Origin: Fibrobacterota bacterium
Lineage (GTDB): Bacteria; Fibrobacterota; Fibrobacteria; UBA11236
Assembly: GCA_028287465.1 (NCBI GenBank)
Contig: JAQBPO010000023.1
Location: 1-64,000, forward strand
DNA: 64,000 nucleotides
Direction of reading: 5' to 3'
The position numbers were made by a program, and so were the translations under genes. The notes below the pieces were generated by a model, which saw only the letters and a program-made list of their open reading frames with translations, made no database searches and had not been told where the DNA came from. This document shows, piece after piece, positions 36,674-42,445 of the stretch. The number at the start of each line of letters is the position of its first letter. Position 1 is the stretch's first letter.

Positions 36674-37138
36674 GGACAAGGGAACTCCCTCATGGGGCCG
36701 CCTTCGTGGCGCGGACTCCCAAAACGCATAAAATTAGAAAGAGGCGCCCCGGAATGCAAAACGGGTCCTTCACCGAACGCCCGGGTGAATTATTTTATGG
36801 CGCAGCGCATCCAAAATTCTCGGTACAAAAGAGACGGGCCCGACATCCAAATGTTAGAAGCAATCGATTTGGGCCGCCTATTCCTGAAGGCGGCGGAGTT
36901 CATGGTCGAGACCGGAAGGGGATTCCTCCGGCTCCGAGAGGCGGTTCTTACGTCCCATACCAGCGCGCCGGTCCTTGTGCCGGCCGGAACGACGGTTTCG
37001 CGAAGACCGGAGGATCGGGCCGCAAAGCCCCTTTCCCCCTCCCGGAAGGGGACCAATCCCGCTTTTCCGGAAAGATCGGATGGGAGAGGACGGTTCTGCC
37101 TGCAGGTGGGAGACCCGGCGCGGGAAAGCGCCCCAGGC
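36674..37138. other. Divergent promoter region between thrS and the sigma-factor operon
   Basis: About 465 bp. The left 150 bp are comparatively AT-rich and must carry the thrS promoter and leader. The sigma-factor frame stays open through this region back past 36800, so a longer N-terminus for that gene cannot be excluded, but the extra sequence matches no sigma-factor domain. No T-box-like or other known leader could be identified. Confidence 0.4.
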
Positions 37139-37639
37139 ATGGTTGCGGGATCCCCCGCGCCGGGAATGGAATCCATCGGGAGCCTGTACCGGAAATACGC
37201 GGCGCCGCTGTTTTGGGTTTGCAAACGGTATACGAGGAACCACGAGGACGCCGAAGACATGGTCCACCAGGTTTTCGTCAAGGTGCAGCAGAACCTGGCG
37301 GGATTCCGCAACCAAAGCGGCATTTATACGTGGATGTACCGTATCGCGGTCAATGAATGCATCCAGATGTTCCGGAAACGGAAATTCGAATCCGACGAGT
37401 CCGTCCTGCCCGACTTCGAGAATACCCTTACCGTCACGCCGGAAAAGGCCATGGAAGCGAGGCTGGTCCTGGAGAAAATCATGGCGGATCGCGACCCGCA
37501 AACGGTCGAAATCCTTTTCCTCCTCTATTTGGAGGGCATGAAGCAGGAGGAAGCCGCGGCGATGCTCGCCATATCCCGGACCACGCTTAACAGGAAGCTG
37601 ACGGCTTTCAAATCCAGCATGGAGCGTTTCCAATGGTGA
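37139..37639 (+). CDS. ECF-type RNA polymerase sigma factor
   Basis: 166-residue sigma-70-family factor. Region 2 covers about residues 12-75 (LFWVCKRYTRNHEDAEDMVHQVF, then GIYTWMYRIAVNECIQMFRKRK); region 4 covers about 105-160 (VEILFLLYLEGMKQEEAAAMLAISRTTLNRKLTAF, an HTH). It lacks regions 1 and 3, as ECF factors do. The start is uncertain: ATG 37139 or ATG 37166 both fit, and neither has an ideal ribosome site. Its stop overlaps the next gene by 7 bp. First gene of a four-gene operon ending in a caspase-like protein. Confidence 0.88.
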   Translation: MVAGSPAPGMESIGSLYRKYAAPLFWVCKRYTRNHEDAEDMVHQVFVKVQQNLAGFRNQSGIYTWMYRIAVNECIQMFRKRKFESDESVLPDFENTLTVTPEKAMEARLVLEKIMADRDPQTVEILFLLYLEGMKQEEAAAMLAISRTTLNRKLTAFKSSMERFQW

Positions 37640-38490
37640 AGACGAATCCCGATTCCACCGGACTGAACGCCGGGCATCCCTCCCGCTTCCGGATTGCCGG
37701 CTACCTGGCGGGAGCCCTGGACCCGGCGCAAAGCCGCGAAACGGAAGCCCATGTCCTGGTCTGCCCCGGATGCGCCACGCTCCTGGCCGATGCCCGGGGA
37801 CAGGCCGCCCTGTTCGCGGACAAATTCCCGACCCTGGAATCCCTCGATGCCTCGCGCGTCCACCCCGTCCCCTCCCCACGGCACCGTACCCGATCGGAAG
37901 CCCCGAACCGCCCCGGTTGGTTGGAACGCCTGCAGGATTGGTTCGATCGCGGGTTCGGAATGCGGCCTGCCCTGGCGGGCCTGGCCTTGCTGGCCGCGGG
38001 GACCATGATATACCTCAACCTTCCCGCCGGTAACGCCGGCGGAACGGCCGCATCGGAAACCGGATCCGGTTCCGAGTTCACCGCCAAGGGCTCCACCGGA
38101 TTCTACCTGTTCCACAATGGCAGGCAGGTCCAGGGGGACACCTTGGCCTGCAAGCCTTCCGATACCTTGCAACTCGGCATCACCAGCGCGGAACCGGTGC
38201 ATTACGCCTTGCTTTACCGGGATGACGACGGTGGGCTGGAAGCCTATCTCGATGGATCCGGGATGGCGAGCGCGCCCCTCGGCAAACCCATGGGCGAGAA
38301 CCTGCCTAAAAGCCTCATCCTCGAAGCGGGGTGGAAACGGGAATCCCTGTATTGCTTATGGTCGGTCCGTCCCTTCTCCCTGGATGAAGCCAAGGCGCGT
38401 GCGGCGGCGGTGCATCCCGATCTCAGCTCCAAGGGCGCAGGGTCCCTGCACCTCCAGACCTACCTGCTGTTGGAAAAGGCCGCGCCATGA
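37633..38490 (+). CDS. Zinc-finger membrane anti-sigma factor
   Basis: 285-residue membrane protein. The N-terminal cytoplasmic domain has the ZAS-type zinc motif H40-x3-C44-x2-C47 (HVLVCPGC). One membrane segment follows at about 112-130, and the periplasmic part (about 140-285) has no named domain, though a FYLFHNGRQV...YALLYRDDDGG pattern recalls DUF4384-like sensor modules. It presumably holds the sigma factor at the membrane until a signal arrives. GGAG lies 8 bases before ATG 37633. It overlaps the genes on both sides. Confidence 0.8.
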   Translation: MVKTNPDSTGLNAGHPSRFRIAGYLAGALDPAQSRETEAHVLVCPGCATLLADARGQAALFADKFPTLESLDASRVHPVPSPRHRTRSEAPNRPGWLERLQDWFDRGFGMRPALAGLALLAAGTMIYLNLPAGNAGGTAASETGSGSEFTAKGSTGFYLFHNGRQVQGDTLACKPSDTLQLGITSAEPVHYALLYRDDDGGLEAYLDGSGMASAPLGKPMGENLPKSLILEAGWKRESLYCLWSVRPFSLDEAKARAAAVHPDLSSKGAGSLHLQTYLLLEKAAP

Positions 38491-39785
38491 CGGATACGGT
38501 CAAGGCCGGAAAGCCCGGCCGATGCGGGTTCCTGTCCGCCATTACGGCCATCGCGGCCCTAGGCGGGCTCCTCCTTTCCGCCTGCCTGGAGGATCATCCG
38601 ATCCTTTCCGGCTCCGACATATACGATGCCAAGCCGCTCCTCCGCGGGGACTCCGCCCTGAATGGTCTGGACAGCGTGGAGATCCAGTTGAAGGATCCCG
38701 CCGAGGCCTGGATGCTCCGGCTTTGGGGCGGCCCTCCCGATTCCCTGGAGCGGGCGCCCCGCTTCCTTTCCGACAAGAGCGGCTCCCTCATCATGATCGT
38801 GCGAGGCTTTTCGAGGGACGCCGGCCATTGCATGACCGAGACCTTCGCGCCAGGCAAGCCCGTGACCCTTGTCGATTCCTGCCCGCGCGGAACCGGCTCC
38901 GGCTCCCTCGTCGTCCTCTCCCAGAGCCCCAAGCAGGACACCACGGTCGGTATCGGCGATTCCGTTTCCTTCAGGGCCTTATTCGGGGGAGGCAGGAGGC
39001 CGTTGAACTATTCCTGGATCTGGAATTCGCCGGGTAAGGCCGATTCGTCCGCGGGCACGCTCTCATCGGGTTCCGCCTTCCAGGTCACGCTTCCGTTCAA
39101 CCTGCCGGGGACCTACACGTTTTCGTTGCAGGTCGTAAGCGATACGTCCCATTTCATATCAGTCTGGCGGATCAAGGTTGTGAACAGCCTCCTCAAGGTC
39201 GATGCCGGCCGCGACACGACCATCCTCTCGACGGATACCCTCTGGTTGAGCGGCAGACCGGCGGCCACGAACGGTTCCATCCTGAAGTCGGAATGGAAAA
39301 TCGGGGACGGGCCTTTCCGGGCGGTCTCTTCGGGCGATACGTCCATCCAGGCTTCCCAACTCGAGGCCGTGAAGCATCCGGACTCGGTCAGCGTCCTAAT
39401 GCCCATCCCGTGCATCTTCAGGGTAACCGATATCCTCGGAAACGTCGCCGAGGATACGATCCGGATCAGCATCCTCTTTTCCAAGGATGCGAGTCTGGCC
39501 GGCCTGAAGACGTCGGAGGGCGCCTTGGAACCGGCCTTCAATCCCTTCGTGACGTCCTACCGTATCAAGGTTCCCCATGCCACGGCAAGCGTAATCCTGA
39601 AGGCGGCGGCCGAAAGCGGATCGGCCTCGATCGAATGGCCCCAATCCCAGGGCTTCAAGTTCGCGGAGTCCACCCTGGTCTATCTGCACGATGGAGCCAA
39701 CTCCGCGCCCCTGCGGGTGCGTGCCGAGGATCCCCGCTTCGGGTCGCTCATCGATATCGTCATCCTGCGGGACACCCTCCCATGA
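38487..39785 (+). CDS. Exported lipoprotein with PKD-like and cadherin-like domains
   Basis: 432-residue lipoprotein. Signal peptide ends in the lipobox LLSAC (Cys33). Residues about 148-240 resemble a PKD/Ig fold (GDSVSFRALFGGGRRPLNYSWIWNSPG ... GTYTFSLQV), with a second such segment at about 245-330. Residues about 332-432 form a cadherin-like beta-sandwich (SLAGLKTSEGALEPAFNPFVTSYRIKV), related to that in the large lipoprotein at 29727-32933. ATG 38487 overlaps the anti-sigma stop (ATGA), and its own stop overlaps the caspase start. Possible surface ligand-binding or sensor partner of the operon. Confidence 0.75.
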   Translation: MTDTVKAGKPGRCGFLSAITAIAALGGLLLSACLEDHPILSGSDIYDAKPLLRGDSALNGLDSVEIQLKDPAEAWMLRLWGGPPDSLERAPRFLSDKSGSLIMIVRGFSRDAGHCMTETFAPGKPVTLVDSCPRGTGSGSLVVLSQSPKQDTTVGIGDSVSFRALFGGGRRPLNYSWIWNSPGKADSSAGTLSSGSAFQVTLPFNLPGTYTFSLQVVSDTSHFISVWRIKVVNSLLKVDAGRDTTILSTDTLWLSGRPAATNGSILKSEWKIGDGPFRAVSSGDTSIQASQLEAVKHPDSVSVLMPIPCIFRVTDILGNVAEDTIRISILFSKDASLAGLKTSEGALEPAFNPFVTSYRIKVPHATASVILKAAAESGSASIEWPQSQGFKFAESTLVYLHDGANSAPLRVRAEDPRFGSLIDIVILRDTLP

Positions 39786-41332
39786 AAATCGCCATCGTCC
39801 TACTCCTCGCCATCTGGCTTCCCGGAAGCGCCATGGTCCGCATGGCCGTGGTCATAGGCAACAATATCGGCCTGGAAGACGATAAACCCCTGCAATTCGC
39901 GACACGGGACGCGGAACAGGTGAACGCCGCCATGGAGCAGCTGGGCGGAATCGATAAGGGGCGCGGATACCTGCTGCTTGACCCGGACGTCGCCAAGGTG
40001 ATGTCGACGTTCGAGGACGCCCGCAGGACCATAGTCTCCCTGCGCAACGACGGCCAGAAGGTCCAATTGCTCATCTACTATTCCGGCCACGGCAGCGAAG
40101 AGGCCTTGCACCTGAACGGGGAGAAGCTCGCGCTCTCGCGCATCCGGGAATTCTTCCGGGAAATGGAGGCCGATCTCAAGATCCTCATCGCGGATGCCTG
40201 TTTCAGCGGTTCGCTGATCCAGGCCAAGGGAGCCAAGCTGATCGATCCCGTGCCCGTCAAATACCAGGATGAGCTCAAGGTGAACGGCTCCGCCATCCTC
40301 ACTTCCAGTTCTGCGGGCGAATTCTCCCAGGAGTCCAAGGAACTGCAGGGCTCCCTGTTCACCCATTATTTCCTCACCGCCATCCGAGGGGCGGGCGATG
40401 CCGACCGGGACGGAATGGTTTCGCTATGGGAGGCGTACAACTATACCCAGGCCGGCCTGCGCCGGAAACTGGCTTCGGTCAAGAACGTCAGCCAGAATCC
40501 CGAATTCGACATGGACCTGCGCGGATCCCAGAACGTGGTCCTGACCCGCGTGAACATGGGCCAGGCCTTCCTGGCCATAAGGAACGTTCCCGAAGGCCGC
40601 TACCGGATCCTGGAGTCGGTGAGCGCGCTCCAGATCGCGGAGATCAGCATCACCGATCCTGAAGGCACCGTGCTCGCGCTTCCGAAAGGATCCTACATGG
40701 TGTACCGCGGTTCCGGGCAGCGGGGAATGGCCGGTTACGCGGACCTTCGCAAATCGAGGACCGTAGAATTGGGCGCGTCCGATTTCGCTCCCGTACCCTT
40801 GGGCGCGCTATCCGCCAAGGGCATGGCCGAACGGGAGCGCACCGTATCGAATATCCGGAGCGGGTGGCATCTTGGTCTGGCACCGCGCTTCTACCCGGCC
40901 TTTCCGGGCCGCGACGTTTCGTCCATGGCCATGGACGCCTCCCTGCATCGCGGCCTTGGAGAATGGGCCGTCTCCGGGGCCTTCGCATACCTTCCAGCTT
41001 ACGTAAGCGAGGCCCGCTACGGCCGGTTCCGGCAGGAGGGCTTGGGGTTCTCGGCCGAAGGGACGCGTTATTGGCGCACCAGGTTCGCCGGTCTTTTCGC
41101 CGGTCCGCGCCTGGAAGCATGGATCCTGGAACAGACTTTCGACGGCAAGGACCTGGGGAGGGGAAACCTGCTGGGTACCTTCGCGGCGTTAGGCGCGGAA
41201 AGGCGCCTGTCGGGTGCCATGTCGTTGACGGCGTCCATGGCGCCCGGCCTGTTCTGGAGCGCCGACGTCAATCGCAACCTGCGGCGCGACCTGGCCGTTC
41301 CCTTTTCCCTGGCGTTGGGATGGGGTTGGTGA
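39782..41332 (+). CDS. Exported caspase-like (C14) protease with C-terminal barrel-like domain
   Basis: 516-residue protein. A signal peptide (residues 1-18) leads directly into a caspase/metacaspase p20 domain (about 20-245). The catalytic dyad is visible: H103 in YYSGHGSE and C140 in DACFSGS. Residues about 260-340 look like a small beta domain. Residues about 365-516 show alternating amphipathic strands and end in GWGW, as in an outer-membrane barrel. An exported caspase joined to a barrel is unusual, since most bacterial caspase-like proteins are cytoplasmic. The start ATG 39782 overlaps the preceding stop (ATGA). Its target and the role of the barrel are unknown. Confidence 0.82.
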   Translation: MKIAIVLLLAIWLPGSAMVRMAVVIGNNIGLEDDKPLQFATRDAEQVNAAMEQLGGIDKGRGYLLLDPDVAKVMSTFEDARRTIVSLRNDGQKVQLLIYYSGHGSEEALHLNGEKLALSRIREFFREMEADLKILIADACFSGSLIQAKGAKLIDPVPVKYQDELKVNGSAILTSSSAGEFSQESKELQGSLFTHYFLTAIRGAGDADRDGMVSLWEAYNYTQAGLRRKLASVKNVSQNPEFDMDLRGSQNVVLTRVNMGQAFLAIRNVPEGRYRILESVSALQIAEISITDPEGTVLALPKGSYMVYRGSGQRGMAGYADLRKSRTVELGASDFAPVPLGALSAKGMAERERTVSNIRSGWHLGLAPRFYPAFPGRDVSSMAMDASLHRGLGEWAVSGAFAYLPAYVSEARYGRFRQEGLGFSAEGTRYWRTRFAGLFAGPRLEAWILEQTFDGKDLGRGNLLGTFAALGAERRLSGAMSLTASMAPGLFWSADVNRNLRRDLAVPFSLALGWGW

Positions 41333-41632: not shown

Positions 41633-42445
41633 ATGGCCAAAGCAATCTTCATAACCGGTACGGGCACGGATGTCGGCAAGACCGCCTTGAGCCTGGCCGT
41701 GCTCCTCTGGGCCCGGCAAAAGGGCCTGCGCGCCGCCTACCACAAGCCCATCCAGTCCGGCACCTACGCCTTCGGGCTCCCCCCACGGGAAGGCGGAATG
41801 CCGCAGGCGAGCGGGTTGCCGCAGGCGGGCAGATTGCAACAGGCGGGCGGGTTGCCGCAGGCGGGCAAGTTGCCGCAGGCGGGCGGGGACGCCGAATGGA
41901 TCCTGGCCATGGCAGGCGGAGGGATATCCACCCACGTCACTTATCGGTTACGTATGCCCGCGTCCCCCCATCTGGCCGCCGAAGCGGAAGGCGTGACCAT
42001 CGACATGGGCCGCATCCGCGGGGAAATCGAAAGCCTGCATTCCGGGCATGATCTGGTGGTGGTTGAAGGTTCCGGAGGGCCCGCGGTCCCCGTCAACCGC
42101 CAAGGCGCCACCCTGGCCCATCTCGCCGCGGAAATGGGCCTTCCCTCCCTGCTCGCCTGCTCCCCCGGGCTGGGAACCTTGCACCATACCTTGAGCACCC
42201 TCGCCTTCCTCAGGACCCTTTCGGCCCCGGTGGCCGGGTTCGCCTTCTGCCATCGCGAGGCCGCGCCATCCGCGCTCGCCGAGGACAATCGCGCGACCTT
42301 GCAATCGCTCACCAGGCTGCCCTGGTTCGGAGCGCTCCCTTTTTCGGAACCCTTGGCGCGTTGCGAGGGTCCGACCCCGGCGGAAGCCGCGGCCTGGTAC
42401 GCGCCGCTGACCCCGTCCCTGGAGGCCTGGTGGAAGCCGGAATGA
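41633..42445 (+). CDS. bioD: Dethiobiotin synthetase with inserted six-residue repeats
   Basis: 270-residue ATP-dependent enzyme that closes the ureido ring of dethiobiotin. P-loop TGTGTDVGKT at residues 8-17, substrate block YHKPIQSG near 37-43, VVVEGSGGPAVPVN as the second nucleotide/Mg region. Residues 56-85 are a repeat insertion (MPQASG, LPQAGR, LQQAGG, LPQAGK, LPQAGG) encoded by five 18-bp units; this part is not in ordinary BioD. The family's usual length is about 220-240. The stop overlaps the bioF start (ATGA). Confidence 0.9.
   Translation: MAKAIFITGTGTDVGKTALSLAVLLWARQKGLRAAYHKPIQSGTYAFGLPPREGGMPQASGLPQAGRLQQAGGLPQAGKLPQAGGDAEWILAMAGGGISTHVTYRLRMPASPHLAAEAEGVTIDMGRIRGEIESLHSGHDLVVVEGSGGPAVPVNRQGATLAHLAAEMGLPSLLACSPGLGTLHHTLSTLAFLRTLSAPVAGFAFCHREAAPSALAEDNRATLQSLTRLPWFGALPFSEPLARCEGPTPAEAAAWYAPLTPSLEAWWKPE
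41799..41888 (+). repeat. Five 18-bp tandem repeats inside bioD
   Basis: Units starting at 41799, 41817, 41835, 41853 and 41871, consensus TTGCCGCAGGCGGGCRRG. The period is a multiple of three, so copy-number changes keep the bioD frame. Confidence 0.9.

What the first reader, a model, noticed from the sequence alone, without database searches (positions are those of the whole stretch)
37139..41332. Overlapping operon: ECF sigma, zinc anti-sigma, cadherin-like lipoprotein, and exported caspase with barrel-like end
Four genes are joined by 4-8 bp overlaps on one strand. Sequence shows an ECF sigma factor, an anti-sigma with H-x3-C-x2-C and one membrane segment, a lipoprotein with PKD and cadherin-like domains, and a protein with a signal peptide, a caspase dyad (H103, C140) and a C-terminal barrel-like region ending in GWGW. 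Caspase-like proteins in bacteria are usually cytoplasmic. An exported form under its own membrane-stress sigma factor would be a new envelope-signalling or programmed-death arrangement. I do not know a described system of this composition. The reading that the lipoprotein senses a signal and the caspase acts at the outer membrane is inference.
Basis: partly seen in the sequence, partly recalled or inferred. Interest (0 to 1): 0.85.

Follow-up and report, generated by a model that had tools for sequence, protein, structure and literature searches.

The report
Outer-membrane caspase with sigma/anti-sigma pair
This bacterium carries a gene cluster in which a caspase-like protease, exported and predicted to be anchored in the outer membrane, sits beside a sigma/anti-sigma switch whose membrane stalk carries the kind of bond such proteases cut, so the protease may be what turns the switch on.

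Summary
Window 37139-41332 encodes an ECF sigma factor, a zinc anti-sigma factor, a lipoprotein and an exported caspase, joined by 4-7 bp overlaps. The caspase C-terminus is predicted as an 8-stranded OmpA/NspA-like barrel (pLDDT mostly >90), and H103/C140 are invariant in 119 homologues. The exact four-gene order is not conserved: two orthologues put the lipoprotein after the caspase. The core sigma/anti-sigma/caspase is strongly conserved in Fibrobacterota and Myxococcota. In 41 Fibrobacterota genomes the anti-sigma's periplasmic DUF4384 domain and the caspase occur essentially one to one. Sigma-linked metacaspase operons were already reported in 2012, Fibrobacter included. The barrel, the DUF4384 anti-sigma and the following I found undescribed in the papers searched. 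Three [K/R]-G dyads are conserved: after the catalytic Cys (K149), in a disordered linker before the barrel (K346), and in the anti-sigma's periplasmic stalk (K152). Caspase homologues of this type cut after K/R. Ten DUF4384 domains and three caspases outside the system lack the dyads. Best reading: the outer-membrane caspase is the site-1 protease that cleaves the anti-sigma factor, an inference (about 0.55). P2-P4 co-variation between the sites failed an independent-pair test and is not claimed.

The parts
36838..36955 (.). non-coding block conserved with genome G002 between thrS (divergent) and the sigma gene; candidate promoter region
   Evidence: DNA alignment; no third-codon-position bias in the in-frame upstream extension
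37139..37639 (+). ECF-type sigma factor (start 37139, or 37166 as chosen by the gene caller)
   Evidence: Sigma70_r2 E=1.4e-15, TIGR02937 E=1.9e-22
37633..38490 (+). anti-sigma factor: N-terminal zf-HC2 zinc domain, one TM helix, disordered periplasmic stalk, C-terminal DUF4384-like beta domain
   Evidence: zf-HC2 22.9 bits; AF2 model; DUF4384 in 24 of 44 homologues, not in this member itself
37966..38016 (+). predicted transmembrane helix of the anti-sigma factor (residues 112-128)
   Evidence: AF2 helix 112-128 and hydropathy
38086..38091 (+). K152-G153 of the anti-sigma factor, proposed cleavage site at the outer end of the periplasmic stalk
   Evidence: K/R 91 of 94, G 91 of 94; stalk 133-151 pLDDT<50
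38487..39785 (+). lipoprotein; conserved N-terminal part (residues 24-132), variable C-terminal part (weak PKD-like and cadherin-like matches)
39782..41332 (+). exported caspase (Peptidase C14) with C-terminal outer-membrane barrel
39839..40513 (+). caspase catalytic domain (residues 20-244); dyad H103 (40088-40090) and C140 (40199-40201)
   Evidence: Pfam PF00656; 119/119 conserved
40226..40231 (+). K149-G150, nine residues after the catalytic Cys, bordering a disordered loop (150-158); proposed self-cleavage site
   Evidence: K/R 116 of 119, G 117 of 119; pLDDT<50 at 150-158
40397..40432 (+). EF-hand-like loop DADRDGMVSLWE (residues 206-217) between two helices; possible Ca2+ site
   Evidence: pattern in 117 of 119 homologues; helix-loop-helix in AF2
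40817..40822 (+). K346-G347 in the disordered linker between the catalytic module and the barrel; proposed release site
   Evidence: K 75 + R 39 of 119, G 110 of 119; pLDDT<50 at 344-358
40859..41329 (+). C-terminal 8-stranded beta-barrel (residues 360-516), ending in Trp
   Evidence: AF2; Foldseek NspA TMt 0.75, OmpA 0.65-0.71, OmpX 0.69

Best explanation
This is an envelope signalling module in which an outer-membrane-anchored caspase homologue is the site-1 protease of an ECF sigma/anti-sigma switch. Shown or predicted from sequence: the sigma factor is cytoplasmic; the anti-sigma factor spans the inner membrane and carries a DUF4384 domain in the periplasm; the caspase has a signal peptide, a periplasmic catalytic domain and an 8-stranded barrel (an even strand number leaves both termini in the periplasm); a lipoprotein is co-encoded. 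Inferred: a signal sensed by the barrel and/or the variable lipoprotein activates the caspase, perhaps with Ca2+ at its EF-hand-like loop. The caspase cuts itself after K149 and may free itself from the barrel after K346. It then cuts the anti-sigma stalk after K152. A general site-2 protease (a Peptidase_M50 gene of RseP type is in the genome) would finish the release of sigma, which presumably transcribes its own operon and others.
For: (1) In 41 Fibrobacterota genomes, hits to the anti-sigma periplasmic domain and to the caspase fall at the same places with almost equal numbers (6/6 in the window's genome, 4/4, 3/3, and 0/0 in genomes lacking either). 35 of 38 caspases with upstream genes held have both partners upstream. 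In Myxococcota most pairs are adjacent; apparently split pairs keep both halves in the same genome. (2) [K/R]-G dyads: only 3 of 516 caspase columns are at least 90% K/R, and two of them are K149 and K346. The anti-sigma has [K/R]-G in 91 of 94, usually 10-40 residues outside the membrane. (3) The only two caspase segments with pLDDT<50 are 150-158 and 344-358; the anti-sigma stalk 133-151 is also <50. (4) Controls: 13/13 system DUF4384 domains carry the stalk dyad; 10 DUF4384 domains outside the system do not. The three non-system caspases in the set (L009, L074, L119:1611) lack both caspase dyads. (5) Caspase homologues outside animals cut after Arg/Lys; MaOC1 autoprocesses at Arg219 (PMC7475262, PMC8283722). 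(6) DUF4384 is fused to caspases in cyanobacteria (PMC8283722) and in L253. (7) Precedent: the caspase-like Csx29 cleaves Csx30, an inhibitor of an ECF sigma factor (PMC10028731).
Against: No cleavage has been measured. Conserved K-G could have a structural or binding role. The non-system DUF4384 domains are not anti-sigma factors, so the control does not separate 'anti-sigma stalk feature' from 'cleavage site'. P2-P4 residues of the caspase loop and the anti-sigma site match within operons in shuffles, but independent sister pairs show no co-variation (P2 own 6 vs cross 5), so that signal may be phylogenetic. P1 K/R co-variation rests on few lineages. The caspase is anchored in the outer membrane and must reach an inner-membrane stalk; release at K346 or a long linker is assumed. 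The sigma regulon and the signal are unknown.
Confidence: 0.55

Rival explanations
1. The caspase and lipoprotein are the output of the sigma factor (a regulated envelope protease, for quality control, surface remodelling or killing of competitors), and the anti-sigma factor is switched by another protease or by ligand binding to DUF4384.
For: Targets are often encoded next to their ECF sigma factors (general knowledge). Recurrent but diverse downstream lipoproteins (27 of 49 close downstream genes match a loose lipobox) could be substrates or cargo.
Against: Does not explain the conserved [K/R]-G in the anti-sigma stalk, nor the near one-to-one tie of this anti-sigma domain to this caspase, kept when the operon is split.
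Confidence: 0.2
2. The K-G dyads in both proteins are recognised by one unrelated trypsin-like or Arg/Lys-specific periplasmic protease that activates the caspase and cuts the anti-sigma factor in parallel.
For: All three sites are basic-Gly in or beside disordered segments.
Against: No such protease is co-encoded; the caspase itself is expected to have K/R specificity and keeps the pocket acid D138 in 119/119.
Confidence: 0.07
3. The [K/R]-G dyads are structural or binding motifs, and caspase and anti-sigma factor interact without cleavage (for example DUF4384 as a caspase inhibitor, sensed by the anti-sigma factor).
For: DUF4384 is also fused to caspases in cis (L253), which suggests binding.
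Against: The dyads lie in or at the edge of segments predicted disordered, with variable neighbours; K and R exchange at residue 346.
Confidence: 0.13
4. A programmed-death or defence module, as caspases are in other contexts.
For: Caspase fold; weak PADLOC caspase match (E=6e-4).
Against: No defence or death partner domain among the four genes; six parallel copies of the module in this genome and an exported location fit signalling better.
Confidence: 0.05

Closest known systems
Sigma-factor/metacaspase operons of Asplund-Samuelsson et al. 2012 (PMC3501461)
   Same: Predicted operons holding a sigma-70 factor and a metacaspase in Myxococcus xanthus (4 of its 5 metacaspases), Anaeromyxobacter, Haliangium, Sorangium, Ralstonia and Fibrobacter; the survey noted that some prokaryotic metacaspases may be extracellular.
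   Different: The parts of that paper read here (operon section and passages found by search) describe no DUF4384 anti-sigma factor, outer-membrane barrel, lipoprotein or cleavage motif, and propose no mechanism for these operons.
DegS/RseA/RpoE envelope-stress pathway
   Same: ECF sigma factor, membrane-spanning anti-sigma factor, periplasmic site-1 cleavage proposed, site-2 protease present in the genome.
   Different: The protease is a caspase homologue predicted in the outer membrane and co-encoded, instead of an inner-membrane PDZ serine protease.
Type III-E CRISPR Craspase (Csx29-Csx30-CASP-sigma, PMC10028731)
   Same: A caspase-like protease cleaves an inhibitor of an ECF sigma factor.
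   Different: Cytoplasmic, RNA-activated TPR-CHAT protease; the inhibitor is unrelated; no membrane, barrel or DUF4384.
Cyanobacterial orthocaspases (MaOC1; caspase-DUF4384 fusions)
   Same: Peptidase C14 domain, basic P1 specificity, autoprocessing, DUF4384 association.
   Different: Not described with a C-terminal barrel or a sigma/anti-sigma partner in the passages read.

Membership tests
Peptidase C14 / orthocaspase-metacaspase | C14 domain with His-Cys dyad and acidic S1 pocket residue | tested here: met
   PF00656 46.7 bits; H103, C140, D138 in 119/119; Foldseek to metacaspases and caspase-9
Peptidase C14 / orthocaspase-metacaspase | proteolysis after Arg/Lys, autoprocessing | not testable with these tools
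   needs biochemistry
ECF sigma factor | sigma-70 regions 2 and 4 only | tested here: met
   Sigma70_r2 57.3 bits; region 4 weak (23.2 bits, cut-off 25.7); TIGR02937 79.7 bits
Zinc-type anti-sigma factor (ZAS, zf-HC2) | N-terminal H-x3-C-x2-C zinc motif plus TM segment | tested here: met
   zf-HC2 22.9 bits; TM 112-128; many paralogues lack the zinc motif
DUF4384 (PF14326) | profile match | tested here: inconclusive
   24 of 44 homologues match at E<=0.01; the window's own protein does not
Outer-membrane 8-stranded barrel (OmpA/NspA type) | signal peptide, eight antiparallel strands, C-terminal aromatic | tested here: met
   prediction only; ends in W; F/W/Y ends in 66 of 119 homologues
DegS/RseA-type regulated proteolysis | site-1 cleavage of a periplasmic anti-sigma region | not testable with these tools
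   candidate site K152-G153 only
DegS/RseA-type regulated proteolysis | site-1 protease is a trypsin-like PDZ protease | tested here: not met
   the co-encoded protease is a caspase homologue
Craspase (Csx29-Csx30) | CHAT protease with Cas7-11 and Csx30 | tested here: not met
   Pfam scans of the four genes show no CHAT, Cas or Csx match; two homologues match CHAT weakly
Sigma-linked metacaspase operons (2012) | sigma factor and metacaspase in one operon | tested here: met

The most novel reading that the evidence does not exclude
An outer-membrane caspase family is the dedicated site-1 protease of a widespread class of ECF anti-sigma factors in Fibrobacterota and Myxococcota: it cuts itself free from its barrel and cuts the anti-sigma stalk at matching [K/R]-G bonds, carrying a signal from the outer membrane to transcription.
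Probability: 0.45. Interest if true: 0.88.

Novelty: new variant of a known kind. Interest (0 to 1): 0.78.

Why it matters
What caspase homologues do in bacteria is largely unknown, and they are usually discussed as death or defence proteins. If true, a large family of them (two to six per genome in this genus, more in some myxobacteria) are signalling proteases at the cell surface, each with its own sigma switch. It also names exact bonds to test, in two proteins, with simple mutants, and proposes how an outer-membrane event could be passed to an inner-membrane anti-sigma factor.

Tried and rejected
Co-variation of P2-P4 between the caspase loop and the anti-sigma site: positive in shuffles, also with one operon per cluster down to 24 clusters at 50% identity, but not in 56 independent sister pairs; not claimed. 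K/R co-variation at P1: few cases (L123; one divergent clade L266/L267/L288), and the automatic Fisher value includes misplaced sites; not claimed. A 96-aa N-terminal extension of sigma (ATG at 36851): aligned with G002 but without codon-position bias, rejected. Solved homologues by single sequence: none; by profile only metacaspases and legumain. Structure search of the anti-sigma model gave no match at E<=0.001. Defence systems: only a weak match.

Full report
OBSERVATION. A codon-usage gene caller written here chose the same genes, with sigma starting at 37166. Pfam and NCBIfam support the sigma factor, the zinc anti-sigma factor (just above cut-off) and the caspase; the PKD and cadherin-like names of the lipoprotein rest on sub-threshold matches.

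WHERE IT IS. The genome has six caspases of this family, on contigs C93, C43, C4, C51, C50 and C10; each has a sigma gene about two genes upstream. It has 31 Sigma70_r2 matches in all.

CONSERVATION OF THE MODULE. 36 of 41 related genomes have the caspase. Of 38 Fibrobacterota caspases with at least two upstream genes held, 36 have the anti-sigma and 35 have both partners upstream on the same strand. A scan of GTDB contigs gave 80 loci, mostly Myxococcota or 'Deltaproteobacteria', a few from Gemmatimonadetes, Goldiibacteriota, Schekmanbacteria and Spirochaetales records. There 53 of 69 have both partners within three genes, in several gene orders. In the two close orthologues (G002, 70% identity; G004, 51%) the lipoprotein follows the caspase instead of preceding it. 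So the core is sigma/anti-sigma/caspase, and a co-encoded lipoprotein is frequent but movable and variable. The window's lipoprotein shares only about 110 N-terminal residues with that of G004. In Myxococcota a lipoprotein often follows the caspase as well.

NEAR-OBLIGATE PARTNERSHIP. A profile of the anti-sigma periplasmic domain (A4) was searched in the same 41 genomes. Its hits lie next to the caspase hits, with almost identical counts per genome, and genomes without one lack the other. The exceptions are one weak fragment hit in G001, one missed partner in G010, and unrelated weak caspase hits in G003 and G025. The Pfam family DUF4384 gave no hits elsewhere in these genomes. In 12 genomes reached through named loci, mostly myxobacterial, most hits pair up. 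Two orphan sigma/anti-sigma pairs (G041:C45, G042:C133) and caspases without partners (G041:C40, G042:C100) lie in the same genomes, as if one operon had been split (inference).

STRUCTURE. AlphaFold2 on an alignment of 48 sequences gave pLDDT 89.6 for the caspase (pTM 0.69). Eight long strands fill residues 360-515. The only two segments below 50 are 150-158 and 344-358. Foldseek matches metacaspase, caspase-9 and legumain for the catalytic part and OmpA, NspA, OmpX and Ail for the barrel. With eight strands both barrel ends face the periplasm, so the catalytic domain is expected there (inference from barrel topology). The anti-sigma model (pLDDT 75) has an N-terminal helical zinc domain, a helix 112-128 that fits the TM segment, a disordered stalk 133-151 and a beta domain from 156. 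That domain is DUF4384 in 24 of 44 homologues.

BASIC-GLYCINE DYADS. In 119 caspases H103, C140, D138 and Q238 are invariant. K149-G150 follows the catalytic Cys by nine residues (K/R 116, G 117). Residue 346 is K in 75 and R in 39, followed by G in 110, in a linker whose neighbouring columns vary freely; only three of 516 columns are at least 90% K/R. In 94 anti-sigma factors the same dyad stands at residues 152-153 (K 87, R 4; G 91), usually 10-40 residues after the TM segment; the few misses look like gene starts called too late. DUF4384 domains outside the system were used as a control: 10 of them lack a dyad at that place, while 13 of 13 system members have it. The three caspases in the set without a sigma/anti-sigma neighbour (L009, L074, L119:1611) lack both caspase dyads. 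Caspase homologues outside animals cut after Arg or Lys, and MaOC1 activates itself at Arg219 (PMC7475262, PMC8283722). These facts together suggest that the three dyads are cleavage sites of the caspase itself. This is inference.

A TEST THAT FAILED. If the caspase loop and the anti-sigma site are both substrates, their flanks might co-vary. Shuffled pairings suggested so, but independent pairs of relatives did not. I do not use it.

CALCIUM. Residues 206-217 form an EF-hand-like 12-mer between two helices, present in 117 of 119. Calcium control is possible but untested.

WHAT IS KNOWN. A 2012 survey reported sigma-factor/metacaspase operons in myxobacteria, Ralstonia and Fibrobacter (PMC3501461). 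DUF4384-caspase fusions are known in cyanobacteria (PMC8283722). A caspase-like protease that cleaves an ECF sigma inhibitor is known in type III-E CRISPR systems (PMC10028731). Searches of the held open-access library for this caspase/anti-sigma combination found nothing closer; subscription papers and preprints are not covered.

VERDICT. A real and widespread module, known only as a gene neighbourhood in the papers searched, with a predicted outer-membrane caspase and a specific, testable proposal for how it works.

Noticed in passing
window 40397-40432: EF-hand-like loop in the caspase, conserved in 117 of 119 homologues, between two predicted helices; possible Ca2+ control.
   Followed up: partly
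L264:3759-5405 and L265:4203-5888 (also L263:3962-5608): Divergent myxobacterial caspases with a lipobox instead of a plain signal peptide; an E-K-G sequence follows the lipidated Cys by about 8-10 residues, and the loop K-G after the catalytic Cys is missing. They may be lipoproteins released by N-terminal cleavage.
   Followed up: no
L253:4100-9861: Cluster of a caspase-DUF4384 fusion and three further DUF4384 proteins (Schekmanbacteria record) without an identified sigma factor.
   Followed up: partly
window 41633-42445: The bioD-like (dethiobiotin synthase) gene carries an inserted run of short repeats (QASGLPQAGRLQQAGGLPQAGKLPQAGG); it heads an apparent biotin gene group.
   Followed up: no
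L109, L127, L144, L158 and others, gene after the caspase: Downstream myxobacterial lipoproteins share a starting pattern like C-G-x-x-[VL]...Y-x-G-x-P-L-x-x-x-x-G, possibly one family tied to the caspases.
   Followed up: no
G041:C45 (L249), G042:C133 (L250): Sigma/anti-sigma pairs that have kept the K-G stalk motif although their caspase is not adjacent; unpaired caspases are elsewhere in the same genomes.
   Followed up: partly
window 36838-36955: Conserved non-coding block shared with G002 upstream of the sigma gene; candidate autoregulated promoter.
   Followed up: partly
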